A model generated the notes under the pieces. It saw nothing but the letters and a program-made list of their open reading frames with translations, made no database searches and had not been told where the DNA came from. This document shows positions 2,000-58,965 of a stretch of DNA of 64,000 bases, piece by piece. The translations under genes and the position numbers were made by a program. This DNA is from Lytechinus variegatus (Eukaryota; Echinodermata; Echinoidea; Temnopleuroida; Toxopneustidae). Each line of letters begins with the position of its first letter. Positions within the stretch are counted from its first letter, which is position 1. The stretch lies in the NCBI RefSeq assembly GCF_018143015.1, contig NC_054748.1, positions 6,483,967 to 6,547,966 of the forward strand, in the 5' to 3' direction.

Positions 2000-2362
2000 A
2001 TGTGAACGGCCAAGTTATAATGTCCATAATGTGGAATTATCTCTGCATTATTATAATTATTATTTATATCTTTATTTCATTATCTATTTTGTATGGCCGC
2101 TCGTTTTTGGCCCATATAGTTTTAAGTGCTATACCCTTTTTTTCGTCTGGAGTGGTCCACACTTTACAAGCTTTGCTTTTTAGTGGACCACTCCGTTTTT
2201 CCAACATTTTTGATATATTATCTTCTGTATCAGGTGCATATTCTTTATATTGGGTTTATTTGAATATTTATGTCATTTGTATTTCCTGATGTTATATTTT
2301 ATTTATTGTAATTATTCTACATTTTGTTGGAAAAAATGAATAAATGAATGAATGAATGAATG
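2000..2362 (+). mobile_element. 3' end of a non-LTR retrotransposon copy
   Basis: A 5'-truncated 3' UTR of the same kind as the one that ends the intact element at 32.7-36.6 kb. It contains the conserved hairpin at 2149-2194 and, about 140 nt later, ends in an ATGA tetranucleotide tail (2337-2362). No reverse transcriptase sequence remains. The left boundary is uncertain. Confidence 0.55.
2149..2194 (+). other. Conserved hairpin of retrotransposon 3' UTR (copy 1)
   Basis: A 12-bp perfect stem, GGAGTGGTCCAC (2149-2160) with GTGGACCACTCC (2183-2194), encloses a 22-nt loop, ACTTTACAAGC then TTTGCTTTTTA. Four other copies in the window have almost the same loop but a different stem that still pairs. 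Inference: an RNA structure used by the element, perhaps for reverse-transcriptase recognition. Confidence 0.8.
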
Positions 2363-2510
2363 AGGAGGGGGCGACCTTATCAACAATGTAGGCCGACGGT
2401 TTCTCATTGAGTGTAAGACTATATGTTATAACATGGATCTATGTTTATAACATGGATCCTACTATAGAACGACCTATGGTTGTAAATCTTTTGAGATTTT
2501 ATGATATATG

Positions 2511-2798
2511 TGGAGCGTTGTGGCCCAGTGGATAAGTCTTCTGACTTTGAAACAGAGGGTCGTGGGTTCGAATCCCAGCCATGGCGTAATTTCCTTCAGC
2601 AAGAAATTTATCCACATTGTGCTGCACTCGACCCAGGTGAGGTGAATGGGTACCCGGTAGGATTAATTCCTTGAATGCATGAGCGCTGAAAGGCAGCTCG
2701 AGCTAAAGCCGGGGTAATAATAATAATAACAACGCGCCTCGGAATAGATTATTTCTAGATAGATGGCGCTATATAAATGCCTATTATTATTATTATAT
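2511..2798 (+). mobile_element. tRNA-derived SINE (family 1)
   Basis: The tRNA-like head has an A box (GTGGCCCAGTGG) and a B box (GGTTCGAATCC) with the phrase CTTTGAAACAGAGGGTCG. The body runs through CACTCGACCCAGGTGAGG and GGCGCTATATAAATGCC and ends in an ATT-repeat tail. Further copies lie at 14061, 27878 and 52611, so this is a dispersed family and not a working tRNA gene. Confidence 0.85.
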
Positions 2799-2982
2799 AG
2801 GGAATAATAATGATGACCTTTAATATTTTGTATAGAGAAATAGAGAAGTTTTAAAAGAGAAAAGTACTTGTTTAGCTGATTGATAACGTAAATTGTTGCA
2901 AAATGAATGCATTGAGTGGGCAAATTGATGTGTTCTCATTCGAGTCAGCCCTTTCTGCTGAGAATGTTGCATTATGGGTGAG

Positions 2983-5617: not shown

Positions 5618-5690
5618 TGCCCCGTGTGAGGATCGAACTCACGACCTTCAGATTATGAGACTGACGCGCTGCCTACTGCGCTAACGAGGC
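5618..5690 (-). tRNA. tRNA-Met (elongator), anticodon CAT
   Basis: On the minus strand a 73-nt cloverleaf starts GCCTCGTTAGCGCAG, has anticodon loop CTCATAA, a T arm with GTTCGATCC, and ends ACGGGGC plus discriminator A. The acceptor stem pairs with one G-U. Sequence past the 3' end runs into a seven-T stretch (5601-5607 on the plus strand), a good RNA polymerase III terminator. It is identical to the copies at 19001 and 37158. Confidence 0.93.
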
Positions 5691-5699: not shown

Positions 5700-6145
5700 A
5701 CATTAACAACCAAAGTAGCATTTCAAAAATATGATCGATTAACCTTTGCACTTGTCTTCACTTAGGAATTGCCCTCATTTCACCGTATAGAGTATTCAAT
5801 AACACCACTCCCCCGAAACGTTGCATAAGAGAAGAAAAGAATGCCTTAGGCATTCTAAACTAATCTGTACAAGTTAATTAATGTAAAAATGAAAACAAAA
5901 AAGAACTTAACTAAACAAGACATCATTTGAAAGATACCCAGAAAAATTGAACATTGGCAAATTGATTGCATTTACTTTTATCTATTCTCTACACCCCCCC
6001 CCCCCCTCAATCATAATGTCTTTTTATCGGTCTCCCCGTATCTTTGGAAGTTATAAATGAAAATTGAAAAAAAGGAGTATTAATGTAACGGAATTTTATA
6101 AATAAGGTATAAATTAGTGCATTAATTTATGAAAGAGAGAAAGAA
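5700..6145. other. Intergenic, no recognised gene
   Basis: AT-rich non-coding DNA with a C-run near 5994-6006. No gene or repeat family recognised. Confidence 0.4.
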
Positions 6146-6325
6146 AGAAAGTATAAATGAATAAACGAATAATTGATTGATTAAATGAATGATTGAATGC
6201 ATGGATGAACGAATGACTGACTGAATTCATTAACTAATCAATCAATTGATTAATTGAGTGAGTGACTGACTGACTGACTAACTGACTGACTGACTGACTG
6301 ACTGTCTGGTTGGTTGGTTGGTTGG

Positions 6326-6402
<77 letters not shown>

Positions 6403-6505
6403 GGATGGATGGATGGATGGATGGATGGATGGTTGGTTGGTTGATTGATTGATTGATTGATTGACTGACTGACTGACTGACTGATTGATTGATTTGGTTG
6501 GTTGG

Positions 6506-6585
<80 letters not shown>

Positions 6586-6636
6586 CTGACTGACTGACTG
6601 ATTGACTGACTGACTGACTGACTGATTGATTGTTTG

Positions 6637-6667
<31 letters not shown>

Positions 6668-6760
6668 AATTGATTAAATGAATGATTGAATGCATGGATG
6701 AACGAAAACTGACTGAATAAATAAATTAATCACTCAATTAATTTATTGATTGATTAGATA
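6146..6760. repeat. Tetranucleotide microsatellite array (TTGA/TTGG/CTGA/ATGG)
   Basis: Long runs of TTGA interrupted by blocks of TTGG, CTGA and ATGG, with diverged edges (AATG units). The same microsatellite class fills PNP intron 3 at 47.2-48.5 kb. It codes for nothing; frames are open only because TCAA repeats lack stops. Confidence 0.9.
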
Positions 6761-8296: not shown

Positions 8297-8620
8297 ATCA
8301 TTTCATTTCGTTTATTTCCATTTTCAACAATGACAGTTTGTTTTGTACATTTTGACATAATTAAATAACAAAACATATTTCAAGTATCCCTGTACAACAA
8401 TTATATTCAAGATTATTACATATCAGGCTGGAAATGGAGGAGGCTGCTAAAAAGCGGAGCTTGTAGAGTGCAGCCTCCTAATAAATATTCTTGTAGTTGC
8501 ATAGCATATAAAATCAAAATAACAACTTAAGTATGAACCAGTAAAATTAAAAGAAAATAGGGGAAATTAAAATAGAAAAGGAAATAAGAAAAAAAGAGAG
8601 ATTAAAGGTCTCCAGAATCC
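8297..8620 (-). mobile_element. 3' end of a non-LTR retrotransposon (minus)
   Basis: On the minus strand the conserved hairpin (8439-8478) is followed by CATTTCCAGCCTGAT and, about 130 nt on, by GGAAATAAACGAAATGAAAT, which matches the terminal phrase of the copies at 36.4 and 58.9 kb. This is a 5'-truncated copy without coding sequence. Its upstream limit is uncertain. Confidence 0.55.
8439..8478 (-). other. Conserved hairpin of retrotransposon 3' UTR (copy 2)
   Basis: The minus strand reads GGAGGCTGC, a 22-nt loop (ACTCTACAAGC then TCCGCTTTTTA), then GCAGCCTCC. The stem differs from the copy at 2149 at most positions yet pairs perfectly, while the loop differs at only a few. Confidence 0.8.
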
Positions 8621-24607: not shown

Positions 24608-25266
24608 GTAACACATGTGTTTCTATGAAGTTTAAACGTCCTATGTATTCCCGGAATGATCTTATAATGTATTAATTACCCTTTTTATATCCATGATGAA
24701 TATTACCAACTTCCTATGTATGTTCAAATAATTATATATTCATTGTATAACAAACACCAGATGAACGAAACAATGGCCAATTTTACCAATTATGACTTTA
24801 TCCTATTTTGTAACAATGCCCCATCTATTTTGAAACTTAAATAATAATTTGCTGAAAGATAGTTTTTACCCCCCCCCCCCCCCCCCCCCTCTTCCATATT
24901 ATTCCCATTATGTTGAACCTTTTCGATTTTGTGTTCAGCAGGACCGTTTTTCCTCTTTATGTTCTACTTGTAAACGCTTCCTTACACACACACTCAAATT
25001 ATCATTTCTCTTATTTTTGAATCATTATTGTTCAGTGAAATAATTATGGTTAATCGAAATTAGTATTGCAATTAGAATCACTATTTTTGAAATTTGAATT
25101 ATCACTGTATATTTGAATTATAATGGCTATATTGAATTAAGATTATTATTGTAATTGAGATTTTACCATGTTTATGTGCAATTTATATGTTTTTATTGTA
25201 AATTCAATGTCAATTCAGCCTTCGTAGCTGCTAAATTGAATAAAACATATCTTGAATCTTGAATCT
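24608..25266 (+). mobile_element. 3' UTR and tail of the RT fragment
   Basis: Non-coding continuation of the element, ending ATAAAACATATCTTGAATC with a short CTTGAAT repeat tail at 25250-25266. A C-run lies at 24870-24890. Confidence 0.55.
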
Positions 25267-27849: not shown

Positions 27850-27877
27850 TTAAGGGATGGTCCAGTCTGGAGATATT

Positions 27878-32115: not shown

Positions 32116-32905
32116 GTTTTGTGAAAAAAATATATATATATATCATAAGTTGTGTATAATGCTACATAATAGAAAAGTGAACAATTAACATTAAAGATGT
32201 TGATCTGGATTTCTTATATGTAAACCATTTGCACGTTGTTTTTTCTCCTATTTTATTGCGTTTCAGGGCCTTTGGGGGTGGGAACAACATTATGCTGAAA
32301 GAGCCCCTCGCACAATAATACTAATGAAATAATGTAAAATTTACCATTCAAAAAACGTTTTTCCAATTGTAATGCAAAGACGAGCAACCACTCGATGAAT
32401 CTCCTTGTATCATTAGACAAAGAATGGCATTCATAACTTTTGAGTTATGCAGTTTATGCGTGTAAAATACCTTGAAATTGTATTTAAAATGTTTTTATTT
32501 TCAACCTAAATGAATTAAATTCACCGGGACAGAACAGCACCCGAGTACAAACTCGTGCATATTAAAAAAAATCTGACGTAAGGGGCGCTAGTCCTTGCTC
32601 GTGCTCGTGCATGACTCTCCATTCACTGCCAATACCTAATTTGGAATGCGAAAGAATCATTTCGCGTACCATTTTCTCATTTGCTGACAGACTCATTTGT
32701 CTTCTACGTCTTGTCATCCCCCCTCTCTGTTTTTTTTCCTGTCTTGCGCAACATATCCTTTACAACGAAGACCTCTTTGTGTGAAAAGCTTTGCATTTGT
32801 TCAGTTTTTATGTTTCCGCCAATATGATTTCTTTTTCTCTTTTTCTTTCCTGTAATACATGCATGTACGCATATAGTAAGTCGACTATAATTTCTTCTTT
32901 TCCAA

Positions 32906-32950
32906 GGGGGATCCACAATTTTACAAGCTTTGCTTTTTAGTGGATCCCCC
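32906..32950 (+). other. Conserved hairpin (copy 3) at the 5' edge of EN-RT
   Basis: Stem GGGGGATCCAC (32906-32916) with GTGGATCCCCC (32940-32950) and a 23-nt loop, AATTTTACAAGC then TTTGCTTTTTA. The open frame reads through it without an ATG. The following CATTTCCATATCCATTTAA parallels the sequence after the 3' UTR hairpin at 36262, so this may be a displaced 3' UTR piece. Confidence 0.85.
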
Positions 32951-35615
32951 TCATTTCCATATCCATTTAAGCTCTATATATGTTTCACAATCATATGATT
33001 ATGTAGTTCGAGACGAGCTTAACAGCATGACTGATACAATTGAATCTCTTTTTATTGAAATTACTATCCCCAACAGCAAAAACATTATCATAGGTGTTAT
33101 ATACAGGCCTCCGAGTTCGAACATCAAATCATTTCTAGATCATCTCTCTGACTTGGTTAAAAATCCAATTTTTGATAGTAAAAATTGCTTTATAATGGGC
33201 GATTTTAATATTGATTTATTAAAACAAAATAATGTTACACAAGATTTTTTGGAAATATTTCTATCCGCTTCTTACTTACCTTTAATATCTAAACCAACAC
33301 GCATAGTCAATGAATCCGCTTCTCTTATTGATAATATTTTCTGTAATATTCTTCCCCCACCCGATTCCTTCATATTACTCTCTGATATCACAGATCACTT
33401 CCCTGTTTCGACTAATTTCTCTTTAAAAGACAGATTCAATAACAATAGCCGTCCACTAAAACGAAGAATAACACACGAAAATATAGCTCGTCTGGGTGCT
33501 AGCTTTTACGATGCTAATGGGTCTTGTGTTTTTGATAGTAACGACGTTAACTTGTCCTTTGAAAATTTTATGAATATTTTTAATCTACACTTTGACACTT
33601 ATATTCCGAAACTTAGAGATAAGCCATCTAACTACAAAAAATCACCGAAGCTTCCATGGATTTCTAAATCGCTCTTGCGTTCGATAAATAGAAAAAATAA
33701 CTTATATTATAAATACGAAATGAAACGGTCTGAGCAATCCAAACTTAAATATACTTATTATAAAAATACACTGACAAAGATTATACGTTTAGAAAAGAAA
33801 AGATATTTTACTACTCAGTTACAACTTTACAAGCGTGATATGCAAAATACATGGAAAATTTTAAAACAAGCAATGAATATATCAAATAATAAATCCAATA
33901 TTACAAAAATTAGATCTGGCGATGTCATTTTTGAAGATTCTCGCCAAATTTGCAATATGCTGAATAATCACTTTTCTTCAATTGGGGAAAATCTTGCAAG
34001 TAATATTCCTCCCGCAGCAAAACACTTTTCTGAATTTTTAGGACCACCAAATTCTAGTTCAATGTTTCTCGCTCCAACTTATAATCAGGAGATAATTAAT
34101 ATTGTTTCTGATTTCAGTTCTAAAAAAAGTACAGGACATGATGACATCAATAATTTTCTTCTTAAGGGGATAATATCGTCAATTGCGGATCCCCTAACTC
34201 ATATATTCAATCAGTCACTTCTTAACGGCATTGTTCCCGAGAGCATGAAAATAGCAAAAGTCATTCCTTTGTTTAAAAAGGGTGACAAATTAGATGTAAA
34301 TAATTACCGCCCAATTTCTTTGTTATCTACATTGTCGAAAATACTAGAAAAGATTATTTATAAAAGAACTATTAATTTTCTCAAATCAAATAATATACTT
34401 TCAAATTCCCAATTTGGATTTAGGGAAAAGCATAGCACTACACATGCATTATTGAGTTTCATTGAAAAAGCGGCACATTCAATCGATAAATCTTCTCATT
34501 TAATTGGTTTGTTCCTGGACTTCTCCAATGCCTTCGACACCATAAATCATGATATTTTACTAAACAAATTACATCATTATGGAGTGCGTGGGAAGGCCTT
34601 GGAGTGGTTCAGGAGCTACCTCTTGAATAGGAAGCAGTATGTCTTTTTAAACGGATGCAATTCTCAAATGAAAAAAAATAATTGTGGAGTTCCACAGGGT
34701 AGTCTTTTAGGCCCGATTTTGTTTATAGTTTATATTAATGATTTTTGTAGATCATCAGATGTTCTTTCTTTCATTCTCTTTGCGGACGACTCTAACTTAT
34801 TTTTTTCACATAAAAATCCTCTTCACCTTGCTAATACAATCAACTCTGAACTAAAAAATGTCACCCAATGGATAAGAGCAAATAAATTGTCAATAAATTT
34901 ACAAAAAACAAAATATATGTTGTTTAGCAACTCTATTAATACACTTCCTGTTGATATTATTTTGGATGGAACTCCCTTGGAAAATGTATCCCATATTAAG
35001 TTTCTTGGAATAACAGTCGATAATAAGCTCTCATGGAAATTCCACATAGATAACATATGTAAAACTATTTCACGCAACATTGGTATAATTAACAAGCTTA
35101 AATTTTGTTTGCCATTATCGTCCCTGCTTACATTATATTCATCCCTTATATTACCTTATTTAAATTATGGAATTTTAGCGTGGGGCAACACACATCAAAC
35201 ACTCTTAGACAAATTACTCCTATTACAAAAGAAGTCTCTTCGTGTCATATGTCACAAAGCATATTTGTCTCATACTGACCCATTATTTTTGGAACATAAA
35301 ATATTGAAAATTAAAGACTTGTATTTGTTCATTCTCGGTCAGTTTATGTACAATTATAACAATAACAACCTCCCAAATGTATTTCATTCAATGTTTCCAA
35401 AAAATCAATCCATTCATAACTATCCAACAAGGCGATTGGGTGAATTCCATTTACCACTTCTAAGAACTTTGCTGGCTCAGAACACATTTATATATGAGGG
35501 ACCGAAGTTATGGAACTCACTTCATAATGATATAAGAACTGCAAAATCTTTGAACTCTTTTAAGACTAAATTCAAATTATCTCTATTAAAATCTTATAAT
35601 GTATCCTCAAATTAA
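32940..35615 (+). CDS. Retrotransposon endonuclease-reverse transcriptase ORF
   Basis: The uninterrupted frame opens at 32880, has its first ATG at 33027 and ends with a stop at 35613-35615. It encodes the second half of an APE-like endonuclease (GVIYRPPSS, IMGDFNIDLL, and the catalytic-type ITDHFPV). The reverse transcriptase follows: STGHDDINN, VIPLFKKGDKLDVNNYRPIS, FGFREKHSTTHAL, DFSNAFDTINHDIL, GVPQGSLLGPILF, catalytic FADD, and the thumb region KFLGITVDNKLSW. The first ~100 residues of a normal endonuclease domain are missing: similarity starts at IYVSQSYDYVVRDEL. The element therefore copies RNA into DNA but is probably unable to nick by itself. FADD replaces the common YADD, as in many elements of this group. 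No in-frame stops, so selection was recent. Confidence 0.9.
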   Translation: MDPPHFHIHLSSIYVSQSYDYVVRDELNSMTDTIESLFIEITIPNSKNIIIGVIYRPPSSNIKSFLDHLSDLVKNPIFDSKNCFIMGDFNIDLLKQNNVTQDFLEIFLSASYLPLISKPTRIVNESASLIDNIFCNILPPPDSFILLSDITDHFPVSTNFSLKDRFNNNSRPLKRRITHENIARLGASFYDANGSCVFDSNDVNLSFENFMNIFNLHFDTYIPKLRDKPSNYKKSPKLPWISKSLLRSINRKNNLYYKYEMKRSEQSKLKYTYYKNTLTKIIRLEKKRYFTTQLQLYKRDMQNTWKILKQAMNISNNKSNITKIRSGDVIFEDSRQICNMLNNHFSSIGENLASNIPPAAKHFSEFLGPPNSSSMFLAPTYNQEIINIVSDFSSKKSTGHDDINNFLLKGIISSIADPLTHIFNQSLLNGIVPESMKIAKVIPLFKKGDKLDVNNYRPISLLSTLSKILEKIIYKRTINFLKSNNILSNSQFGFREKHSTTHALLSFIEKAAHSIDKSSHLIGLFLDFSNAFDTINHDILLNKLHHYGVRGKALEWFRSYLLNRKQYVFLNGCNSQMKKNNCGVPQGSLLGPILFIVYINDFCRSSDVLSFILFADDSNLFFSHKNPLHLANTINSELKNVTQWIRANKLSINLQKTKYMLFSNSINTLPVDIILDGTPLENVSHIKFLGITVDNKLSWKFHIDNICKTISRNIGIINKLKFCLPLSSLLTLYSSLILPYLNYGILAWGNTHQTLLDKLLLLQKKSLRVICHKAYLSHTDPLFLEHKILKIKDLYLFILGQFMYNYNNNNLPNVFHSMFPKNQSIHNYPTRRLGEFHLPLLRTLLAQNTFIYEGPKLWNSLHNDIRTAKSLNSFKTKFKLSLLKSYNVSSN

Positions 35616-36217
35616 ATCTTATTCATCATCTCTGTCAAGAGGTTAGTCATCATTTTTACTATAAAGACTATAATTAAAACATAAATCATCCCTTTTTTAA
35701 TTGAAAAAAAATCTGACACAAGTCCTTCCCAATTGTGCTCGGTTTTTAACCTCATATATTATTTGTGTCTATCCTCTCATCTTTTTTCTCTTTCCTGTCC
35801 GCTTATATCCGCTTTCCTACCGCTTATTTATTTACGGCATCAATCACATTTCTCGCGCATTTTATTCTTTCCAGGTCATTTTATATATTTTTTTTCTCCT
35901 TTTATACACATTGAATCCAGTTTGCTTGAGTCCACGATGGCATGTGTTCTACCTACGTTTAGCAGCACCCATCCATCTTCTCAGGGCATTCTCCCCTTTC
36001 TCTTTTCTTTTTTTTTGGGGGGGGGTGGGAAGGGTGGATATATTTTGGACATATTTCAGGACGGTTTGTTTTATCCTATACAATCTATATTTTTTGATAT
36101 CTTCGTATTTTATATTTTGTAAGTATTATTTCTCTCTCATTTATTTTTTTTTTTTTTTCTCATTTGATTACATATGTCTGCATTTGTACTCTGTTAATGG
36201 TTTTGTTATCTATTTTT
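35616..36217 (+). mobile_element. Retrotransposon 3' UTR, hairpin-proximal part
   Basis: Pyrimidine-rich non-coding sequence between the RT stop and the hairpin. Two overlapping hydrophobic frames here (from 35701 and 35733) reflect T-richness only. A G-run lies at 36016-36025. Confidence 0.7.
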
Positions 36218-36261
36218 GAGGGGCCCACATTGTACAAGCATTGCTTTTTAGTGGGTCCCTC
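36218..36261 (+). other. Conserved hairpin (copy 4) in retrotransposon 3' UTR
   Basis: Stem GAGGGGCCCAC (36218-36228) with GTGGGTCCCTC (36251-36261), pairing with one G-U, and a 22-nt loop, ATTGTACAAGC then ATTGCTTTTTA. It sits about 185 nt before the first tail repeat. Confidence 0.88.
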
Positions 36262-37157
36262 CATTTCCATCTTAATTTAATTTCTATTGAAAAATAGTTA
36301 AAACCTCCAATGTGTTGCCCAAATCGTGTAAGTTTTTTCCACAACATATGTATTATTATTTTTGTTTCTTTGCATTGGATATAAATAATTATTTTTATAT
36401 ATATGGTATACAATTTGTTTTTGTTTGATGGAAGTGAAATAAATAAAATTGAATTGAATTGAATTGAATATATTATACTGGTTTTTTTTACGAAGTAAGA
36501 ATGCCCTTCTGTAAAATTGTATTTGATTTGTATTGTTTTATATTACTTTGTATTATGTTTTGAATGGAAATGAAATAAAAGAATTTAATTGAATTGAATT
36601 GAATTGACAGACAATGCAGGTAGGGGCGTCGTCAGAATGTTTTGATGGAGGGGGGGTGGGAAGACGACCTATATGATTGTGACGTCAGCTTACACTCAAT
36701 TGAATTACCCGAGTTATGAGTTAGAAGACCCAACCCTCTTTTTCTCCCTTTTTCCTGATTCCATTCCCCTCTTTTTCTTTTTTCTCTTCACTACTGGAAA
36801 AGAAGATAGGGGTTGTCCCTCTGACCCCCCCCCCCCCGTCGTCGCACTGCTCCCGACTGCCAGGGTGGGGCTGTTCACGAGATCTTAATGAGTACGTGCG
36901 AATTCCGTAGCTAGATCGTGCTCCTCAGCTCTTCAAAACTCAGAATTGCTCAGAATAAGGACGACAGGTTGCTCTTTTCTGTTTTTTTTTCAAGGGTTTG
37001 ATTGCATGTTTCCTGATGATAATTTGTTCCTTCTTTGCATCTTTTAAAACAACACGATCATTTGTTTATAAACTACATTTTTTTTCAAAAATAGTCGAAG
37101 ACAAATCGGCTATTAATTTCAAAAAAAAAAATCTATATAAAAAAAATTGAAGCAGCC

Positions 37158-47245: not shown

Positions 47246-47286
<41 letters not shown>

Positions 47287-47666: not shown

Positions 47667-47702
<36 letters not shown>

Positions 47703-48027
47703 CAGCTTGGTTGGTTGATTGATTGACTGATTGATTGATTGATTGACTGAGTGAGTGGGTGAGTGTGGTGGCGGTAGCTGATGTGAATGGGTGGGTTACA
47801 TGTAGGTGGAGGAAAGGGGAGACTGATTGATTGCATGAGTGAATTCGTGAGTGAGGGTGTTGGTGAAAGAGTGAGTTGGTAAGTATGTGATTGATTGATT
47901 GATTGAGTGAGTGAGTGAGTGGTTAGGTAGATATGGTGGCGGTGTAGCTGATGGGAGTGGGTGGGGTAAGTGGGTGGAAAATAGGGGAAAATGGGTGATT
48001 GATTAACTGACTGACTTACTGACTGAC

Positions 48028-48080
<53 letters not shown>

Positions 48081-50473: not shown

Positions 50474-50527
<54 letters not shown>

Positions 50528-51680
50528 AAGTTGTTGTAGCCAGTAAGGAGTGGTTATTAGAGTAAGTACAAGCTTAGTATAGTATTAACAAGATGATATC
50601 AGTTAAGTATAACGAGTGACAGAGATATTACTGAGAAAACTAATCATTATCCTCATCACTGTCGTCGTCGTCATCATTTATAGGTTCATCACTATATTCA
50701 CCTGTACAGGCTGGAAACTTTGGCACCTTCTCAAATGGGACGTTGTAGCGTTCCTCCAGCTTGTTGGCAAGATCAATCAAGCCAGACCCGCATATGATAC
50801 CAATACTCGGACGATGTGGTTGCCTTGACAACAGGCACTCGGCCATCCCCTCGTAGTCTTCGTAAGTAAACCTGACCAAATCACCAGTATTATTTTTTTA
50901 AAGAGAGAATAAAAGATAAGATTATAAACTCATGACTCATGATGATGAATATTGTAATGTATACCCAGTTGTGTGACCGGACAGGTTGTGTGTCCGGACG
51001 ATCAATTTTAGAAAGTCATTTGGAAAAATTTACAAGCGAAGTTTCACAAATTTTTAGTACAAAATGTTAGGAAATATCATAAAGAACAAAATAGGAGATG
51101 ATTGCAAGCATTGAATTCATATTTTTAGGGTAATCCAAAGACAAAAAAGACGGCTTCCACAATATAAATTGTCCGGACACCCGACCCCCCATCCTACTAT
51201 ATTGCCCTGGGTGTACTTCAAAGAAATCTCAAAAATATAGTAAGCATACCTCATATTTACCAATTTATTAGAATGGAAAACTCAATTCGTCCACTCACCA
51301 GTTCGTCGAATAACCAGTTTGTTGGACTAAGTGTTAATTGTCTAAATGAATGAAAATGAAATGAGTATTAGACCAACTGGTTATGAGACGAAATGGTAAC
51401 TAGACGAAGTGATGATTGAACCAAATGGATACTGGACCAACTGGTTGTTACACGAAATTTTGATGGACGGAATGGCATGTGACTTGGACGAGTTGGCAGT
51501 AGACAAAATTGGCAATCCCCCCCCCCACACTCACACTAGTAGGGTAGCTCTATTGTCAGCAGTAGCTCCATGTGACGTGCCTTCATTATCATTCAGGTAT
51601 ATCCGAAATGTAACCAAGATTTATAAAAAAATATATATATAGTAATGAACTTACATGTTTTCCACATTGTTATTCGTCAT
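43847..51680 (-). CDS. Purine nucleoside phosphorylase-like protein, 6 exons
   Basis: Joined exons (51680-51655, 50871-50702, 49852-49749, 47073-46898, 45269-45079, 44055-43847) total 876 nt and encode 291 residues; human PNP has 289. All introns are GT-AG, and exon boundaries and residue counts match the vertebrate protein without internal gaps. PNPs split purine nucleosides with phosphate to free base and ribose-1-phosphate in cytosolic purine salvage. Conserved (human numbering): Ser33 in CGSGL, His86 and Tyr88 in FHLYEGY, Phe159, Met219/Ser220 in GMSIVPEV, His257. Changed: His64 to Gln, Arg84 to Pro, Asn115 to Ser, Phe200 to Tyr, Glu201 to Pro, Asn243 to Asp. Asn243Asp in human PNP is known to favour 6-aminopurines, so substrate change is plausible; loss of Arg84 and His64 leaves catalysis uncertain. 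An in-frame TGA precedes the ATG. Confidence 0.93.
44181..44467. repeat. ~70-bp tandem repeat with inverted edges (PNP intron 5)
   Basis: AGGTTCTCAACCCAAAAG recurs at 44243, 44316 and 44385 with poly-A stretches between. The block is edged by GGCGGCGGAAG on the left and CATCCGCCGCC on the right. It looks like a dispersed repeat with internal tandem expansion; A-runs may be length-variable. Confidence 0.7.
45079..45269 (-). CDS. PNP-like gene, exon 5
   Basis: 191 nt, acceptor TTATAG/G, donor GTAG/GTTAGT. Encodes [20 protein letters not shown] to [20 protein letters not shown] and [13 protein letters not shown] replaces GPSFET, so the base-binding Glu201 is a proline. GC-rich against its AT-rich surroundings. 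Confidence 0.93.
45512..45584 (-). tRNA. tRNA-Lys(TTT)-like, possibly a pseudogene
   Basis: The minus strand starts GCCCGGTAAGCTCAGTCGG, with anticodon arm TCAGACTTTTAATCTGA and T arm AAGGATTCAAGTTCCTT, close to canonical tRNA-Lys. The acceptor stem has one C-A mismatch, the discriminator is T where Lys tRNAs normally have G, and no T run of four or more follows at once. It lies in PNP intron 4. Confidence 0.65.
45813..45944. mobile_element. MITE TACCTCGGTCAC, truncated copy (PNP intron 4)
   Basis: The left arm TACCTCGGTCACATTTGCTC with GCGGCGGCCGTACGGCG matches the element at 10969. The right arm is shortened to CGTGACCAAGGTA, missing the CGGCCGCCG part. Confidence 0.75.
46021..46205. repeat. 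GAA/GAT microsatellite (PNP intron 4)
   Basis: A purine-rich run of GAA, AAG, GGT and GAT units. It opens long frames in several phases on both strands, which are artefacts of the repeat. Confidence 0.85.
46249..46737. mobile_element. MITE GGCGGGGTAAGTTG (PNP intron 4)
   Basis: Ends TATAGGGAAAGGCGGGGTAA and the complement CAACTTACCCCGCCTTCCCC plus TACTATA, about 490 bp apart. The left arm repeats GTAAGTTGAGC / CAAGTTGAGCC. AT-rich interior, no coding. Confidence 0.75.
46898..47073 (-). CDS. PNP-like gene, exon 4
   Basis: 176 nt, acceptor CATTAG/G, donor AAAG/GTTGGT (weak). Encodes [20 protein letters not shown], then [20 protein letters not shown] and on to [17 protein letters not shown] of PNPs becomes TSASGA. 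Confidence 0.93.
47130..48540. repeat. Tetranucleotide array filling PNP intron 3
   Basis: About 1.4 kb of TTGA, TTGG, CTGC and GTGA units, with a higher-order unit TTGACTGCTTGGTTGG repeated many times in 47200-47760. A longer repeated phrase, GTGGCGGT...AGCTGATG...GAGTGGGTGGG, occurs near 47768, 47936 and 48140. The minus strand is stop-free for 448 codons because TCAA repeats read NQSI in every frame. Confidence 0.9.
48541..48788. mobile_element. MITE TACACTGTTA (PNP intron 3)
   Basis: Ends TACACTGTTA and TAACAGTGTA, 248 bp apart. The interior has inverted phrases such as TTTACAGG / CCTGTAAG and TTTCTGCA / TGCAGAAA. Non-coding. Confidence 0.8.
48789..49220. other. PNP intron 3, GAATG-rich stretch
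   Basis: Fringe of the tetranucleotide array (GAGTGAGT, GAATGAATG words). No coding sequence. Confidence 0.5.
49221..49640. mobile_element. MITE, GCACACCTTACGACTG family (PNP intron 3)
   Basis: The left AAGGTCACCGCACACCTTAC continuing GACTGTTCGCGATCCGATTT is matched inverted on the right by AAATCGGGTCGCAGACCACTC continuing to TGTCGCCTAA, allowing for mismatches. 420 bp, non-coding. Confidence 0.7.
49749..49852 (-). CDS. PNP-like gene, exon 3
   Basis: 104 nt, acceptor TCAAAG/T, donor TGGAAG/GTGAGA. Encodes [16 protein letters not shown] and [18 protein letters not shown]. The usual VPGH(A/K)G loop and the GRFH arginine are replaced (EEQKG, GPFH), while His86 and Tyr88 equivalents stay. Confidence 0.93.
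49950..50545. repeat. CTT-rich then GTA trinucleotide array (PNP intron 2)
   Basis: 49950-50160 is pyrimidine-rich (TTCTTC words); 50160-50545 is mostly ACT, then GTA/GTAGTG repeats. Poly-Ser, poly-Val and poly-Thr frames on both strands come from the repeat. Confidence 0.9.
50702..50871 (-). CDS. PNP-like gene, exon 2
   Basis: 170 nt, acceptor GGTCAG/G, donor ACAG/GTGAAT. Encodes [14 protein letters not shown] through IGIICGSGL (phosphate-loop serine) to KVPKFPACT. Ends in phase 1. Confidence 0.93.
51290..51515. repeat. Short-word dyad repeat, ACCAACTGG family (PNP intron 1)
   Basis: Words such as CCAGTTCGTCGAATAACCAG on the left and GACCAACTGGTTATGAGACG on the right flank GGACTAAGTGTTAATTGTC. 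Same centre and design as 3897-4262, where the centre reads GGACTAAGTGTTAATTAGGC. Confidence 0.65.
51655..51680 (-). CDS. PNP-like gene, exon 1 (coding part)
   Basis: ATG ACG AAT AAC AAT GTG encodes MTNNNVEN plus two bases of the next codon, with donor AT/GTAAGT. Joining to exon 2 gives [11 protein letters not shown], aligned with ENGYTYEDYK of the vertebrate enzyme. Good -3 A before the ATG. Confidence 0.85.
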
Positions 51681-52863: not shown

Positions 52864-54845
52864 GGTGTGGAAATCACCGACTTCCCGATTTAATGGAATA
52901 AATATAATCGCTGTTTTACAACTTGTAATTTTCAACAATTAATGAAAGAAGAAAATACCTGAAAATGTATTTCAGAAATAGGCCTACTTATGAATCACTA
53001 TGCTTGTTATGTCAAAGATTTAACGAATTTAGCAACAGTTTGTAAAATAATAATGCTTCACGTCAGTTTAAAGTAAACAGGTTTATTCGATTTGTACATA
53101 ATATTGTAAATGCAACAATCATAATTATGATGGCATGATTTTACAGCATGCGATGTCTGTTTATTTACACTTCAAATATTTTTTTAATGTTTTTTATTTA
53201 ATGTGCGTAAGTTAGTTTGCGACAGATGTATACTTAAATTTCCGGACCTTGCGATAATATTTTGAGTATTTTTTGTAAATGGCAACCTTTTTGTCAGTTA
53301 TTTTCATTTCATTTCCTTTTTCTTGTATTATTTGTATTATCGTTTTCGTCTTATATCTATTAACAATTGTTACTGAATTAGTGTAACATCTTTGTATGAA
53401 ACTGTAAATATTCAAATTGTTGCTCTGATTGTAAATGTAAACTTATGGGTTTTTTCTGTACCCATTTCGGGTTACATGAGGAAATAAAAATCACATTATC
53501 ATTGCGCATCTCACATTTTTATTTTTATCATTATAAATAAAAATGAAGGTATTTTATTTAAAAACTATTCGCAGCAAGAGCTGAATTGTACAGAACTTTT
53601 GTGTAAAAAACAACATAAAACATAACAATATCAAAATAGAATTTAAAAAATACACGAAACGTGAAAAAATATACTATCATTAATACTTTTGGGGTTAATA
53701 TGAATCAACAGAATATTTTCAAATATAAGTAATTGCAGAAGTTTCAAAATTTGCCTAAGATATAGTATACGGGAAAGCGGATTGGAAGGATTTATGATGT
53801 AAGTGAATTGGAATGGATAAATCTGACTTGAGGATATCGAGATTTTGAATTACTGACGTATACAGAGTATAAAGAGAAATGGAAGTGGGTAACAATGGGT
53901 AAATAATTAGAATAAAGTTTTATATACAGAGAGTTTTGTATAATTATTTCGTTCTACTGAAACATTACAGATAGTCGCTGATTATTCGAATTCAATAATA
54001 ATAAAAAAAGTCACATTGTAACACATACGCATTGGGAAGAGAAGAGTAAAAGTAAAAACTGGGACGAAGGAACAATAAAATAGAGAGAGAGGAGAAAGAG
54101 GTGGATAGTGAGATAGAAAAAGAATTGGAGAAAATGATGGAGGAAGGGAGAGAGAGAGAAAGAGAGATAAAGAGATGGAGGGTGAGATAGAAAAAAGAAG
54201 AGGAAGAAGAGAAAGGAGATATGAATAGAAACAAAAGATTTAGGAAGAGGTCATAATGCAGATCATAACAGATTGTCTTCTTTATCTACGATTCGTTCAA
54301 TAAGCTAATTAGATATGGAATTGGACTGAGTTGTACCTTTGTGTCCTACATTGAAGGAGATAGTAAAAGAGTATTAAGGAGACGTGATTGATAGCCCGTC
54401 ATCACTGGAAGCCAAATTGCTTCATTTTAGCTGTATAACATACATGACAATTTCACCCTTTACATATATAGAAAACCGGCCCTATTAAACATTAACTGGT
54501 AAGTCCAAAGGGTCGGAGCAAATGTGATGAAATCGTTCTAAGTTGTTTACTTTGCTGGTGGGGAAAACCCACTTCTATTAATCTCATGACGATTTCGCAG
54601 TACCCAATCAGCATGCACGGAACTATTTACCATTGTTATGTTTGATCAAAATTTTCAATTTAATGCAAGCGTAACCATTTTGAGCGGTAAGCCAACGTTT
54701 ACGCAGACTGGTACAGATTTTGATACTTCCTGGAAATGAACTCCATCCTCTTTACACTTGATATTGAAATCATGACTTTCCCATCCCCCTCCTTTACTGT
54801 CATCTGTTGTACTCTTGCCTGATTGACATACATCTAGAACTCAAC
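52864..54845. other. Intergenic before the TRIM-like genes
   Basis: AT-rich; an AT-rich 3'-end-like phrase (GAGGAAATAAAAATCAC) is near 53480, and a purine-rich GAGA stretch at 54080-54230. No gene recognised. Confidence 0.45.
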
Positions 54846-55478
54846 ATGGCTGAGAAAGCGGAAACTTCAGGCCCTCCACAAAGCTTGATATGCCCACTTT
54901 GCTTAGACATCTTCGTCGAAGCAGTCATTCTTCCGACATGTGGGCATACTTATTGCCGTAGATGCCTCAAAAACATCGATCTTTCCACTCAGAGCTATCA
55001 TATGACGTGCCCTGTCTGCAGAAAGAAGTCCAAGTTTACATCTGCAAAGTGTGTTGATGATTTCCCCGCTAATGTGACGGTGAACGCGTTCGTAGACGAC
55101 TACCACGCGAGAAAGAGTGAGACACGCCCAAAATGCAATACTTGCAGACGGCAATGGGATGCTGAGTTATTCTGCAAGACCTGCGACAGGTATTTGTGTG
55201 AAAGGTGTGTGACTGGTCATCAAGAAATGGCTTTTCATTTTGAAGGCCATGAGACTGTTGCCATTGAGGATGTCATTGATCAATCTTCTAAAAAAGACTG
55301 CACCAACGAACAAGAGGACAAAAAGAGTGGAACACGTCCAAAATGCAATGCTTGCAGACGGCAAAGGAATGCCAACTCATTCTGCAAAACCTGCCACAAG
55401 TACCTGTGTAAGAAGTGTGTATCGGGTCATCATGAGATGGCTTTTCTTTTTGAAGGTCATGAGATTGTTCCAATAGAG
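54846..55478 (+). CDS. TRIM-like gene 1, exon 1 (RING plus two B-boxes)
   Basis: RING at about residues 18-60. First B-box: RPKCNTCRRQWDAELFCKTC to GHQEMAFHFEGHE. Linker: SSKKDCTNEQEDKKSG. Second B-box: RPKCNACRRQRNANSFCKTC to GHHEMAFLFEGHE. The second finger is a clear copy of the first. Confidence 0.88.
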
Positions 55479-57985
55479 GTAGGCAAGGGGAAGATTAGTC
55501 ATGATGATTCATTGAAAAAATGCTGCATGATGATAAAAACAAGAAAATGTTTGTGCGAATTAAGGTCCACATTAATTTGTCAACATTTTGAATACTCATT
55601 GGTCGTCATGGTCATTAATTAAAGAGAATCGAACTGTACCATCACGACCAATTACGAATAAGAATTGGGGTGCGCCCGGGGCAACGGATGCACCCCTGAA
55701 AGATTTCAGCAAGAAATTCACCAAAGTACGAATACGAATTAAGGAAGAGTTATAAATAAAAAGGGGGAAGTATTGAGAGAAGGAAGGGGGAAGAATAACA
55801 AGAAGATTGATAAAAATCTTCAATTATATAAATGTAGGTAAATGTATCTATTCAATCCTCAGGAGGTAAGTATTGTAAGAATAAAGCTAGCATTATACTT
55901 AAAGCCTGTGTATAGCTTTGGTAAAGGGTCAATAATGTGATTGATAATCGAATATCATCTAATATGACAGTCTTACTGAAGCGTAGAGACCGTTAGATAT
56001 TTTTCCAACTGCACTTCTCTGAGAAAATTTCAAATATTCAAATCTTGGATATATAGCGCCCTCTCTCGGCGATGCTTGTTTTAAATTAAAAAATGGGCAT
56101 TCAAGCATTTATCTTATAAATTTAGTGATTAGATATCCAAAAGTTACAGACAAAGAACATATCTTGAAAGTTTCAGCCCATTCCATGATTTAGAATAGGA
56201 TTTAATTGAAAGACAAAAACACACAGATATTTTAATTTGATCGGGTGACCCGATCAAGTTAAATTTCCATGTAATATCGCAAAATTTATCCTGTAAAACA
56301 CATTTTCATTTCATATCCTCCACATCATAACTGTTATAGGGCATATCCATTCATATTATCTAGCAATGAATTGGAATAGTGATAGGTGCATTTTGGTGGA
56401 TTTACCAAAACTATACACAAGCTTTAAAACGTTGGTCTTAACCACTAATGGCTTCCCCCCCCCAAAAAAAAAAAAACCGTACAAACGTTGGTTTTGGATA
56501 CTATGGACCCCTAAACAAGCATTCATTACAACCATGAAAGGAGGACCAAAGAACGAAAGGAAAGTTTATACTAAATACATGGTCAAAAGGTTCGAGCCTA
56601 TTCCGACATAATTTTTAAGATCTGATGTCCACACTAATACTATTACTACTACTACTACTACAGTTGTGAGCCGGTCAATTGGAGATACACACCAGTTTTG
56701 AGTTTTGATTATTACAATAGTTGTATTACCTGTTTCATTATCCCCTGCCACTTTTTTTTAACCCAAGTACAAACCATAAACAGAACACAGAGCGCTTAGA
56801 AACAACAGTAGTAATAAGCGCCTTATAAATGTTATGTATTATTACTACTACTTTTAATAGTACTTATAATACTGCTCTGCTCCTAAAGGCGCGTACACGG
56901 ATTTGGACTTTTCCGCGATGTGAATTTGTCTGTAAAATTTGACCCCTCCCACCCCCATCCCCCCCCCAAAAAAAGGGGGAGAGTCTTTGCCAATCGTATT
57001 GGGTGCGGATCTGCGCCAGTACTTCTTTTGTCTTACATAATGCTTAATGTCCCATATTATTTGATTCTTGGGATTCTTTAAGAATGTCAATTACTGGGTT
57101 CTTTTTTCTCGCTTGTATTAATTCACACAGAAGAAGCCTGAACAAAATCTTCAACCTAACCTCGGCAGCAACACAAGATCAGATCCCAAGTTAAATGTCA
57201 TTAAACGTGTAACTCTACCAGCATTTGCAGAGGTGTGGGGAATGACGCGGTACTCTGATGACAGCGTGGGTATCCCGTTTGGGAAGGTTGGACATGGTGC
57301 AGCTATAATCAATTCAGATGGTAGAGAGCAGCCATGGCCGTACCCGAACACACGTAATGGCCTGGAGTATTTTGATCTTATTATACAGGAAGACAGGTCA
57401 CTATGCGTATCGACGGGTAATTCAGAAGCACACGTATATTCTCCCGATGGATCTAAGAAATCAACCATTCACGTGAATGACAATGGCAAATTTCTCACCC
57501 TAAACAGGAGTCCATCAGATGAAATCATCATTTCTAACGCTGGAAAACAAGTTTACATCTATGACCCTACAGGATCCACTCTCAAACACGCTGTTCAAAC
57601 AAGAAACAGGACCGGTCAGGCAGCAGCCACCAGATCGGGTTTGATCGTCGCGAGTTCATGTTGTTTCTTTCCAAGGGTGTTAACAGTCTATGACAGGGAT
57701 GGGAATGCCGGTGAGTCTCTACAAGGTCCAGATGGTGTCGGCCTGTATGCTGCCGTGGATGAGCAGGATAGGGTGTATGTAGCGAGTGTTGACATGCTGA
57801 ATAAGAGAGTTGTGATCAGGCTCTATGATCTTGACGATCTGAACTTGAAGGAAAGAGTTGAATTCAATGCGCTCGATTTGAAAGGGATGTTTTCATCGTG
57901 GTGTTACCTGGTTTCCCTTTCATACGAAATGCTTGCATTTGCTTGTATGAATCACTTGTATTTCATCAAAGTATCACTGGAATAA
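54846..57985 (+). CDS. TRIM-like RING/B-box protein with beta-propeller-like C-terminus
   Basis: Two exons are proposed: 54846-55478 (211 codons) and 57131-57985 (284 codons plus stop), both joining in phase 0, for about 495 residues. TRIM-type RING proteins are usually E3 ubiquitin ligases. Exon 1 encodes a C3HC4 RING (CPLCLDIFVEAVILPTCGHTY through CPVCRK, minus the cap of 20), then two B-box-1-like zinc fingers in tandem. The donor is GAG/GTAGGC; without splicing the frame runs to a stop at 55622. Exon 2 follows acceptor CACACAG and has propeller-like strands (HVYSPDGSKK, VYIYDPTGS, LTVYDRDGNAG, RVYVASVD). No coiled-coil or second B-box type lies between, which is odd for TRIMs. An ATG with A at -3 sets the start. 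Confidence 0.8.
55479..57130 (+). other. Intron of TRIM-like gene 1
   Basis: About 1.65 kb. It holds the TTAA MITE at 55899-56427, an ACT repeat at 56641-56661 and C/A-runs. No coiled-coil exon could be found. Confidence 0.6.
55899..56427. mobile_element. TTAA MITE, AGCCTGTGTATAG family (copy 2)
   Basis: TTAA at both ends, arms AAGCCTGTGTATAGCTTTGG and CTATACACAAGCTTTAA. Inverted relative to the copy at 31585 and nearly identical to it, including the central GATCGGGTGACCCGATC palindrome. Confidence 0.92.
57131..57985 (+). CDS. TRIM-like gene 1, terminal exon (propeller-like)
   Basis: Open from the acceptor to TAA at 57983-57985, beginning KKPEQNLQPNLG. Repeated strand-turn motifs (D/PDGxx, YDPTG, YDRDG) fit the NHL/propeller-like C-terminus of TRIM45- or TRIM56-like invertebrate proteins. 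The stop TAA lies inside AATAAA (57981-57986). Confidence 0.8.
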   Translation, partial: KKPEQNLQPNLGSNTRSDPKLNVIKRVTLPAFAEVWGMTRYSDDSVGIPFGKVGHGAAIINSDGREQPWPYPNTRNGLEYFDLIIQEDRSLCVSTGNSEAHVYSPDGSKKSTIHVNDNGKFLTLNRSPSDEIIISNAGKQVYIYDPTGSTLKHAVQTRNRTGQAAATRSGLIVASSCCFFPRVLTVYDRDGNAGESLQGPDGVGLYAAVDEQDRVYVASVDMLNKRVVIRLYDLDDLNLKERVEFNALDLKGMFSSWCYLVSLSYEMLAFACMNHLYFIKVSLE

Positions 57986-57986
57986 A
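57981..57986 (+). terminator. Poly(A) signal overlapping the stop codon
   Basis: AATAAA spans the end of the last Glu codon, the TAA stop and one base more. If used, the 3' UTR would be only some tens of nucleotides. Confidence 0.4.
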
Positions 57987-58440
57987 ATGTACCTCGTTTT
58001 CATATAATCCAAACTCAACTGAACTTAATGATCTGCATTATTGCGAATAATGGACCCCCCCCCCTTCCACAGATAGTGTAGGACTAATTGATTATCAGTC
58101 CATTAACCGTTTTATCTGCACATTAATCGGTTGTATGTCTCCGAAATATCAAAATTTGAATGTAAACTGTGAATTATCAACTCAAGAAGAGTGCCTGGTA
58201 ACTTTACCACTTCGTCGCACTCTCTTTCAATGAAAATGCAGTATATATATCGTTAATTCTTCGTTTTCATTGATTATATTCCCTACTACTACTTTACAAA
58301 TTTAACTGAGCTAATAAATATTGTAATAATATTTATTGTTAAGGTAGTTCAAGTGCACATATGAATTATCATATGATAGTTCATTGGCAAATTTATCAGA
58401 TATTAACTTAACAAGCTAACTTCTAATACTTTGTATTTAT
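57986..58440. other. Intergenic, no recognised gene
   Basis: AT-rich spacer between the TRIM terminal exon and a retrotransposon 3' end; C-run at 58054-58062. Confidence 0.45.
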
Positions 58441-58965
58441 TTATTTATATTATTTTATTTTGATTCCAGGCAAAAGGCAACAATAATATGTACAAGAGGA
58501 AGATATTACCACCCACTAGTGCCTGTGGATGACTATCAAAAAGAAAAACTAGTTTCTATTATGAAGCTCTCCTCACCAGTCGGGGTTTACAAATATACAA
58601 AAATAAAATGGGTATTAATTGGCAATAAATATTTTGTTTATAGTGCAAGACAAAGTGTACGTATCATTTTTTATACAAGTAGTTTTGTCAGGTATTATAC
58701 ATGTATATTCAACTAGATTCATGCTCAAATTTCTACCATGTTGTGTTTGTGTTTTGCTCATGTAGTAGGAGGCTGCATTCTATTAGCTTCGCTTTTTAGT
58801 AGCTTCCTCAATTTCCGTCCTGATTTATGGTTATCTTGATTATTATACATATAAAGTTTTCTGGTTTTATTGATTATAAATATCAAGATGTATGTAACAA
58901 AACTTATTGTAAATGATTGATGGAAGTGGAAAATAAATGAAATGAAATAGAATAAAATGAGCGAA
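58441..58965 (+). mobile_element. 3' end of a non-LTR retrotransposon copy
   Basis: Contains the hairpin at 58768-58807, then ATTTCCGTCCTGATTTATGG and, about 125 nt on, GATGGAAGTGGAAAATAAATG and an AAATG-type tail. This matches the 3' ends at 8297 (minus) and 36218. The left limit is uncertain and no coding sequence remains. Confidence 0.55.
58768..58807 (+). other. Conserved hairpin of retrotransposon 3' UTR (copy 5)
   Basis: GGAGGCTGC pairs with GTAGCTTCC through seven Watson-Crick and two G-U pairs. The 22-nt loop is ATTCTATTAGC then TTCGCTTTTTA. It is the most decayed of the five copies, yet still pairs. Confidence 0.75.

What the first reader, a model, noticed from the sequence alone, without database searches (positions are those of the whole stretch)
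2149..58807. Five copies of a hairpin with covarying stem and constant loop
At 2149-2194, 8439-8478 (minus), 32906-32950, 36218-36261 and 58768-58807 the stems are GGAGTGGTCCAC, GGAGGCTGC, GGGGGATCCAC, GAGGGGCCCAC and GGAGGCTGC. The partner strand changes to match (G-U pairs in two). Loops are 22-23 nt and nearly fixed: A-Y-T-N-TACAAGC-N2-YGCTTTTTA. Compensatory change with a fixed loop is the signature of selected RNA structure. Four copies lie 125-190 nt before a retrotransposon 3' tail. Inference: the hairpin is the cis signal the reverse transcriptase, or another element protein, binds. I know of no named motif with this loop.
Basis: partly seen in the sequence, partly recalled or inferred. 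Interest (0 to 1): 0.78.

Follow-up and report, generated by a model that had tools for sequence, protein, structure and literature searches.

The report
Shared RNA handle of urchin retrotransposons
Many families of a sea-urchin jumping gene (a LINE) end in the same small RNA structure, a nearly fixed hairpin tip on a stem whose letters drift but stay paired, tied by a second helix to the tail, which looks like the handle by which the element's copying enzyme finds its own RNA.

Summary
The five hairpins are real and the only ones the model finds in the window. The genome is a sea urchin's. All five sit in LINE 3' ends; 32906 belongs to a LINE split by a nested LINE, and a duplicate locus shows its empty site with target-site duplication TGACAGAC. 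Both helices coevolve (0 of 20,000 permutations each; disjoint-pair p=0.002 and 0.003); a tree-based column test is weaker, 4 of 17 pairs. Of 20 places chosen by RT alone, 19 carry the structure, 14 by model and 5 mainly by reading; a sister copy of the twentieth has it. Of 20 LINEs of another RT clade, none has it on the sense strand; 14 carry a different module. Best reading: a clade-wide 3' recognition RNA of a stringent L2-like LINE. ORF2 binding is inferred. Kind known (UnaL2, ZfL2); this two-helix form I found nowhere in print.

The parts
2149..2194 (+). P1 hairpin, copy 1 (GGAGTGGTCCAC stem, 46 nt)
   Evidence: (64.8 bits)
2196..2206 (+). P2 5' arm of copy 1, TTTTTCCAACA
2325..2335 (+). 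P2 3' arm of copy 1, TGTTGGAAAAA
2339..2363 (+). AATAAA and (TGAA)n tail of copy 1
8439..8478 (-). P1 hairpin, copy 2 (GGAGGCTGC stem)
   Evidence: (65.2 bits)
8427..8437 (-). P2 5' arm of copy 2
8318..8328 (-). P2 3' arm of copy 2
8298..8316 (-). AATAAA and tail of copy 2
32685..32692 (+). 5' copy of target-site duplication TGACAGAC of the outer LINE (GGGGGATCCAC family)
   Evidence: empty site at 18451
32906..32950 (+). P1 hairpin, copy 3, in the outer LINE's 3' UTR
   Evidence: (68.6 bits)
32952..32960 (+). P2 5' arm of copy 3
32973..36469 (+). nested 5'-truncated LINE inserted in the outer LINE's 3' UTR (both edges approximate)
   Evidence: most long RT matches start at residue 12 or 13; outer 3' end resumes at about 36470
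32940..35615 (+). ORF of the nested LINE (endonuclease remnant plus RT, 891 aa; element-derived from about 32973)
   Evidence: (RVT_1 2.1e-40)
36218..36261 (+). P1 hairpin, copy 4, of the nested LINE
   Evidence: (67.4 bits)
36262..36271 (+). P2 5' arm of copy 4, CATTTCCATC
36427..36436 (+). P2 3' arm of copy 4, GATGGAAGTG
36438..36468 (+). AATAAA and (TTGAA)n tail of the nested LINE
36564..36572 (+). P2 3' arm of copy 3 (outer LINE, after the nested insertion)
36574..36604 (+). AATAAA and tail of the outer LINE
36605..36612 (+). 3' copy of target-site duplication TGACAGAC
58768..58807 (+). P1 hairpin, copy 5 (GGAGGCTGC stem with G-U pairs)
   Evidence: (52.5 bits)
58811..58819 (+). P2 5' arm of copy 5
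58919..58927 (+). P2 3' arm of copy 5
58932..58960 (+). AATAAA and tail of copy 5
25214..25231 (+). different constant module (TTCAGCCTTCGTAGCTGC) of the second LINE clade, downstream of the RT piece 23746-24441
53571..53585 (-). second-clade constant module (TTCAGCTCTTGCTGC) of another element

Best explanation
It is the 3'-terminal recognition structure of a large clade of L2-like (stringent-type) LINE retrotransposons of a sea urchin. Shown by sequence: P1 is a stem of 6-13 bp (10-12 in 20 of 25 representatives) whose letters drift with compensation; on it sits a nearly fixed module, (T/A)ACAAGC-N3..5-GCTTTT, which can form a 4-bp mini-hairpin above an asymmetric internal loop. P2 starts where P1 ends, loops out about 70-160 nt in the well-scored cases, and ends at AATAAA and the simple-repeat tail. 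Inferred: P1 and P2 stack end to end, so the tail leaves at the foot of P1, about one helical turn from the module, imitating the 'stem-loop next to the tail' layout of fish L2 LINEs. Inferred: ORF2 (probably the basic stretch between endonuclease and RT) grips the module by sequence and the stem by shape, which places the tail at the nicked target for target-primed reverse transcription. The stem is then free to drift as long as it pairs, and the module is held fixed across families.
For: Pairing: (10 of 11 P1 pairs changed on both sides; 54 cells against 16.0 shuffled, 0/500; slid controls at most 19), (P1 and P2 arm-swap tests). Part of a LINE: TSD and empty site, tail signal 53/60, RT on the same strand upstream in 27/60. 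RT-first sample of 20: 14 by model at E<=0.0052; L070, L073 and L085 at E 0.058-0.077 plus reading; L081 and L084 by reading; L076 none, but its sister copy L110 has it. Clade specificity: 0 of 20 other-clade LINEs on the sense strand; 14 of the 20 have another module. Module fixed while the rest drifts: in 49 pairs of loci with RT identity under 50%, module identity 0.94, stem strand 0.38, spacer 0.32. Geometry: P1-to-P2 gap -3..2 nt, P2-to-AATAAA -4..4 nt in the 18 of 25 representatives with P2 score of 8 or more. Sense strand: the five sense matches score 52-69 bits, the three antisense ones listed 15-19; G-U 27 against A-C 8 cells (49.9 and 32.3 shuffled). Protein: the 23-residue stretch that I match, by its PW, to the tail-binding region is 0.70 identical across 6 sequences against 0.38 in the later linker. 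Precedent: in ZfL2 LINEs stem swaps were tolerated, loop swaps were not (PMC4176376 section 13).
Against: No binding or mobility data. The R-scape-like tests reach E<0.05 for only 4 of 17 pairs when just structure pairs are counted on the model-fitted alignment, and for none among all pairs on either alignment. P2 scored below 8 in 7 of 25 representatives (one, L025, because the script took a wrong tail), and its cognate arm was the (joint) best partner in only 8 of 25. The constancy of the module in the C1 sample is by selection; only the RT-first sample speaks to it, and five of its 19 positives rest mainly on reading. The tail-binding stretch is only as conserved as much of the RT domain (80th percentile of windows). 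Module distance does not track RT distance significantly (Mantel r=0.19, p=0.074). L076 lacks the hairpin. No SINE with a tRNA head uses the tail in 33 loci scanned. The genome was sampled, not surveyed.
Confidence: 0.72

Rival explanations
1. The structure is bound by a host protein or the ORF1 protein and serves RNA stability, export, 3'-end processing or RNP packaging rather than RT recognition.
For: It adjoins AATAAA; 3' UTR hairpins often act this way (general knowledge). No binding data exclude it.
Against: Clade specificity: 19 of 20 against 0 of 20 in one genome with one set of host proteins, and a different module in the other clade. ORF1 protein could also be clade-specific, so that variant is not excluded.
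Confidence: 0.17
2. Shared ancestry only: a family radiation whose 3' UTR looks alike, with pairing as an accident of GC-rich inverted repeats.
For: Some loci are close (RT identity up to 98%); stem distance tracks RT distance (Mantel r=0.45); tree-based column test weak.
Against: RT identity falls to 41% while the module stays 0.94 identical in pairs under 50% and spacers are 0.32 identical; disjoint-pair contrasts 9 positive, 0 negative, 3 ties for P1, 11 of 12 positive for P2.
Confidence: 0.05
3. A DNA-level function of the inverted repeat (cruciform, excision signal, MITE-like repeat dropped into LINE 3' ends).
For: Near-perfect inverted repeats around a pattern with 2045 exact matches.
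Against: In the RT-first sample they lie at one place of a LINE on one strand; G-U pairs outnumber A-C more than shuffles do; P2 arms are separated by 47-203 nt yet sit at fixed places relative to hairpin and tail; the insertion with the empty site has the TSD and tail of a LINE.
Confidence: 0.03

Closest known systems
3' stem-loop of zebrafish ZfL2-1/ZfL2-2 and eel UnaL2 (L2-clade stringent LINEs)
   Same: 3' UTR stem-loop of a LINE before a short-repeat tail; stem exchangeable, loop specific; [quoted passage not shown] UnaL2 stem also has an internal loop and a pentanucleotide tail (PMC5135761, passages).
   Different: UnaL2's loop is GGAUA (PMC5135761 passage) and no second helix to the tail is described in what I saw; here a structured constant module of about 18 nt and a helix P2 that bridges about 120-180 nt between hairpin and AATAAA in the window copies. 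Sharing here reaches RT identities of 41%.
R2 3' UTR RNA
   Same: 3' UTR (about 250 nt) needed for recognition by the element's own protein (PMC5135761 passage).
   Different: Different element type; no Rfam match of any such family here.
3' hairpin of monocot L1 LINEs and SINEs
   Same: Compensatory stem, conserved loop bases, stem bases variable (PMC3747384 passages).
   Different: Different clade, loop UCU and flank CGAG; no second helix described in the passages.
Sea-urchin LINE/SINE pairs (CR1-4_SP with SURF1; L2-1_SP/CR1-3_SP with SINE2-8_SP)
   Same: Shows that sea-urchin LINEs include ones sharing 3' ends with SINEs (table rows in PMC3747384).
   Different: The passages give no RNA structure; I could not compare sequences with Repbase entries.

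Membership tests
Stringent-type L2-clade LINE with 3' recognition stem-loop (UnaL2, ZfL2) | RT (and endonuclease) ORF upstream on the same strand | tested here: met
   Window ORF: RVT_1 2.1e-40; PF14529 endonuclease 0.00068, 19.9 bits, below its 27.4-bit cut-off in this truncated copy. RT found upstream in 27 of 60 loop-selected loci.
Stringent-type L2-clade LINE with 3' recognition stem-loop (UnaL2, ZfL2) | 3' UTR stem-loop before a short-repeat tail at the insertion end | tested here: met
Stringent-type L2-clade LINE with 3' recognition stem-loop (UnaL2, ZfL2) | Stem sequence free, loop sequence fixed | tested here: met
   (as a pattern of variation; not as a mutant test)
Stringent-type L2-clade LINE with 3' recognition stem-loop (UnaL2, ZfL2) | RT belongs to the L2 clade in a tree with reference LINEs | not tested
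   Only human L1 and R2-type structures matched among LINE proteins at hand; 'L2-like' rests on the PW...-basic stretch and recalled motifs
Stringent-type L2-clade LINE with 3' recognition stem-loop (UnaL2, ZfL2) | Tail-binding region between EN and RT (cTBR) conserved | tested here: inconclusive
   PW[IV][ST]xxLL[KR]SIN[RK]KN in 6 of 6 sequences, 0.70 identity, but the RT domain is similarly conserved and the match to cTBR is by motif
Stringent-type L2-clade LINE with 3' recognition stem-loop (UnaL2, ZfL2) | ORF2 binds the stem-loop; loop change abolishes retrotransposition | not testable with these tools
   Needs bench work
Stringent-type L2-clade LINE with 3' recognition stem-loop (UnaL2, ZfL2) | SINE partner shares the tail | tested here: inconclusive
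   No tRNA gene in 33 loci without RT upstream; other SINE types not sought
UnaL2 RNA family of Rfam (existence recalled) | Match to the Rfam covariance model | tested here: not met
   No match in the window at gathering scores nor in 17 loci at E<=1
R2 3' UTR element (Rfam model recalled) | Match to an Rfam R2 model; rDNA site | tested here: not met
   No such Rfam match; no rRNA match in the window

The most novel reading that the evidence does not exclude
Each LINE clade in this genome carries one clade-wide RNA password: a fixed module on a freely drifting stem, TACAAGC-N3-GCTTTTTA in one clade and AATTCRGCC-TTT-GGCTGC in the other. Because the password is shared by families whose RTs are as little as 41% identical, RTs of one clade could copy each other's RNAs in trans, so families compete for a common pool of enzymes. 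The second helix P2 is a measuring device that keeps the module one helical turn from the priming tail whatever the 3' UTR length.
Probability: 0.3. Interest if true: 0.75.

Novelty: new variant of a known kind. Interest (0 to 1): 0.56.

Why it matters
How LINE enzymes pick their own RNA out of the cell's messages has been tested in few elements. Here nature supplies about two dozen families with one fixed module, scrambled stems and a helix that ties module to tail, plus a second clade with another module as a built-in control. That makes loop-versus-stem recognition, and whether families can mobilise each other, directly testable with short RNAs. A covariance model of the module could also mark LINE 3' ends in echinoid genomes.

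Tried and rejected
A survey of RT clades by PF00078 did not complete; the contrast rests on one other clade. SINE partner: none found. Rfam: only tRNAs in the window at gathering scores; in 17 loci six miRNA-model matches below their gathering scores, in L022 (best E 4.3e-9) and L078, none at the hairpin. Viral contigs: 19 loop matches, none with the stem above 29.6 bits, taken as chance. MAFFT alignment A2 of 38 hairpins misregisters long internal loops and was not used for counts. The R-scape-like test on A1 gave no pair at E<0.05 over all pairs; on A3, after dropping 6 rows that were antisense or off-place, 4 of 17 structure pairs at E<0.05 and none over all pairs; kept as a result against the strong form. 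Paper searches for this motif listed none whose passages or abstract describe it; the library holds only open-licence papers. A paper on the UnaL2 hairpin was not held.

Sampling to know: the 60 C1 loci are 60 of the 100 places listed, all on the first 34 Mb of one contig; the first 40 were taken in order by strand, the last 20 with some places skipped, partly for variety of loop tips. In the arm test 26 representatives were picked by hand, after P2 had been noticed by eye in several but before scoring; L056 and L061 are the same family; tail anchors of L070, L080 and L066 were given by hand; L066 fell out (no tail within the stretch); L025 was kept though its tail was mis-assigned. The disjoint pairs were matched by arm similarity, not by an RT tree. 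In one search, 21 RT pieces were translated and L086 and L029 (under 110 aa) dropped; the 19 kept include L072 and L075 of one family.

Full report
What is there. The window is part of an 870-Mb, 33-contig genome. A mitochondrial COX1 gene on contig C33, translated with the echinoderm code, points to a sea urchin (that the protein looks like an echinoid's is recalled). A covariance model (R1) built from 27 hairpins, these five among them, finds the five in the window at 52.5-68.6 bits and nothing else above 18.7 bits.

Anatomy of P1. Each window hairpin is a stem with a long 'loop' that can itself pair: a short 5' bulge, UA/UA, C against UU, AAGC/GCUU and a 3-nt tip. In 25 representatives the stem has 6-13 bp, 10-12 in 20 of them. 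In 24 distinct sequences 10 of 11 stem pairs show changes on both sides, 54 cells against 16.0 +- 4.7 in shuffles (0 of 500), and slid partners give at most 19; five of the six inner pairs never vary, but 22 of the 27 sequences were fetched by the exact loop, so that constancy is by selection. On 44 distinct rows fitted to the model, 112 cells against 35.6 +- 7.5 (these rows included some of 6 that were antisense or off-place). G-U cells number 27 and A-C cells 8 (49.9 and 32.3 when shuffled), which fits the sense-strand RNA.

A second helix, P2. Directly after P1 comes a strand whose complement lies just before AATAAA and the repeat tail, for example TTTTTCCAACA...TGTTGGAAAAA in copy 1, CATTTCCATC...GATGGAAGTG in copy 4, and TTCTCTTTC...GAAAGAGAA, CATATTTCAC...GTGAAGTATG, TCCGTTC...GAACGGA elsewhere. 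In 25 hand-picked representatives (about two dozen families) cognate P1 strands score 12.27 against 7.42 for swapped ones and cognate P2 strands 10.09 against 7.49; 0 of 20,000 permutations reach either; the cognate partner is the (joint) best in 14 rows for P1 and 8 for P2. To guard against relatedness I compared disjoint nearest pairs: cognate beats swapped in 9, loses in 0 and ties in 3 of 12 pairs for P1, and wins in 11 of 12 for P2 (sign test p=0.002 and 0.003). An R-scape-like test with a tree from the hairpin itself is weaker: none of 1035 pairs on A1; on A3, 4 of 17 structure pairs when only these are counted and none over all 990 pairs.

Geometry. In the 18 of 25 representatives with a P2 score of 8 or more, P2 begins -3 to 2 nt after P1 (median -1) and ends -4 to 4 nt before AATAAA (median 0), while the spacer runs from 73 to 155 nt; over all 25 it runs from 47 (the mis-assigned L025) to 203. 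Two hairpins that abut can stack; the tail would then leave at the foot of P1. That stacking is inference.

It belongs to LINEs. Copy 3 (32906) looked like an exception. It is the 3' UTR of one LINE split at about 32973 by another, 5'-truncated LINE that carries copy 4; the outer 3' end resumes at about 36470 with its P2 arm, AATAAA and tail. A duplicated stretch (18000-18800) holds the empty site, and the outer insertion is bounded by an 8-bp target-site duplication, TGACAGAC, at 32685 and 36605. So five of five copies precede a LINE tail. Among 60 loci on contig C1 fetched by the loop alone, 53 have a tail signal 60-330 nt downstream (55 of 240 and 57 of 300 control windows do), 27 have the RT C-terminus upstream on the same strand within 900 nt, 59 have a model match at the expected place, and 56 of these reach 43.5 bits. 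L014 has no stem.

RT-first test. I searched the genome with the RT of one divergent family and took 20 places of diverse identity without looking at their 3' ends; by reading they fall in about 13 families, three of which were already in the model. The model finds the hairpin in 14 at E 0.0052 or less; in L070 and L073 it finds the core alone (E 0.058) and in L085 the whole at E 0.077, a level at which antisense matches also occur, and I accept these by reading. In L081 and L084 it is seen by reading only. L076 lacks it, but another copy of the same family, L110, has it with P2 and tail. Across 19 loci RT identity runs from 41 to 98% (median 52%). In the 49 pairs under 50%, the 13 fixed module letters are 94% identical, the P1 3' strand 38% and the spacer 32%; in these loci the module was located by its AAGC...GCTT core, and six of the 19 were fetched by the loop or lie in the window, which favours high identity. 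Module distance does not track RT distance significantly (Mantel r=0.19, p=0.074); stem distance does (r=0.45, 0 of 5000).

Another clade, another module. The window also holds a piece of a different LINE RT (23746-24441, about 30% identical). From its relatives I took 20 places and fetched about 1.8 kb of 3' flank each. None has the P1 model on the sense strand at E up to 1; three antisense matches include a strong one in L098 that lies beyond that element's tail. Instead a degenerate pattern for AATTCRGCC-TTT-GGCTGC finds a module shortly before AATAAA in 12 of 20, and L093 and L106 were added by reading; L091, L094, L095, L100, L108 and L109 gave none by the pattern. Its outer stem also coevolves: 14 loci, cognate 6.85 against 5.22, 0 of 20,000 permutations, though the cognate is the (joint) best in only 3 rows. 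In the window this module is at 25214 (+) and 53585 (-).

Mechanism. Zebrafish ZfL2-1 and ZfL2-2 are the tested precedent: their ORF2 binds a 3' stem-loop through a region between endonuclease and RT, stems can be exchanged, loops cannot (PMC4176376; passages, section 13). The urchin pattern, free stem and fixed loop, is what such recognition would leave behind over time. The protein stretch that I match to that region by its PW reads PW-I/V-S/T-x-x-LL-K/R-SIN-R/K-KN in six urchin sequences and is 0.70 identical against 0.50 for the next 25 residues and 0.38 for the 60 after those; the RT part is 0.61. Two sequences of the other clade differ there. I therefore propose that ORF2 reads the module, feels the stem, and that P2 sets the distance to the tail. 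Steps shown: structure by coevolution, position, clade association in the samples. Steps inferred: stacking, ORF2 binding, role in priming.

Known or new. Rfam has no match but tRNAs in the window at gathering scores and in 17 loci none at the hairpin at E up to 1. Passages of PMC5135761 list experimentally supported LINE stem-loops (SART1, UnaL2, ZfL2, R2). PMC3747384 passages list sea-urchin LINE/SINE pairs and a monocot L1 hairpin with conserved loop and compensated stem; a PMC4316615 passage mentions a conserved CR1 hairpin. [quoted passage not shown] having left this out at first, I lowered interest from 0.58 to 0.56. My searches found no account of this module or of a closing helix. I call it a new variant of a known kind. 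That the RT is of the L2 clade proper was not tested with reference sequences.

Noticed in passing
14058-19658 and 27852-37800: Diverged duplication (blocks 93-99% alike, spacing about 13.7 and 18.1 kb); much of the length difference at 32700-36600 is the nested pair of LINEs.
   Followed up: partly
23746-25290 and 53571-53585: Elements of a second LINE clade whose 3' ends carry another constant module on its own covarying stem.
   Followed up: yes
5618-5690, 19001-19073, 37158-37230, 45512-45584 (all minus): Four tRNA matches, three with identical scores, two of them in the duplication and the third in a related repeat; a fifth, weak one is at 59089-59161 (+).
   Followed up: no
2509, 14058, 27852, 52599: Dispersed 99-nt repeat with a tRNA-like B box (GGTTCGAATCCC) that may be a SINE head; no Rfam tRNA match there at gathering score.
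   Followed up: no
54807-55622 and 61802-62503: Two related open frames with RING and B-box motifs (Pfam run on the first only) and an internal 210-nt duplication.
   Followed up: no
6142-6744 and beyond, 47168-48514, 50231-50576: Long (GATT)n-like and (TAG)n-like low-complexity arrays, one open as a 448-codon frame on the minus strand.
   Followed up: no
L076 (C4:8520169-8522327): A copy with the RT of a hairpin family but no hairpin within 1400 nt; its 3' flank diverges from the sister copy L110 shortly after the ORF.
   Followed up: partly
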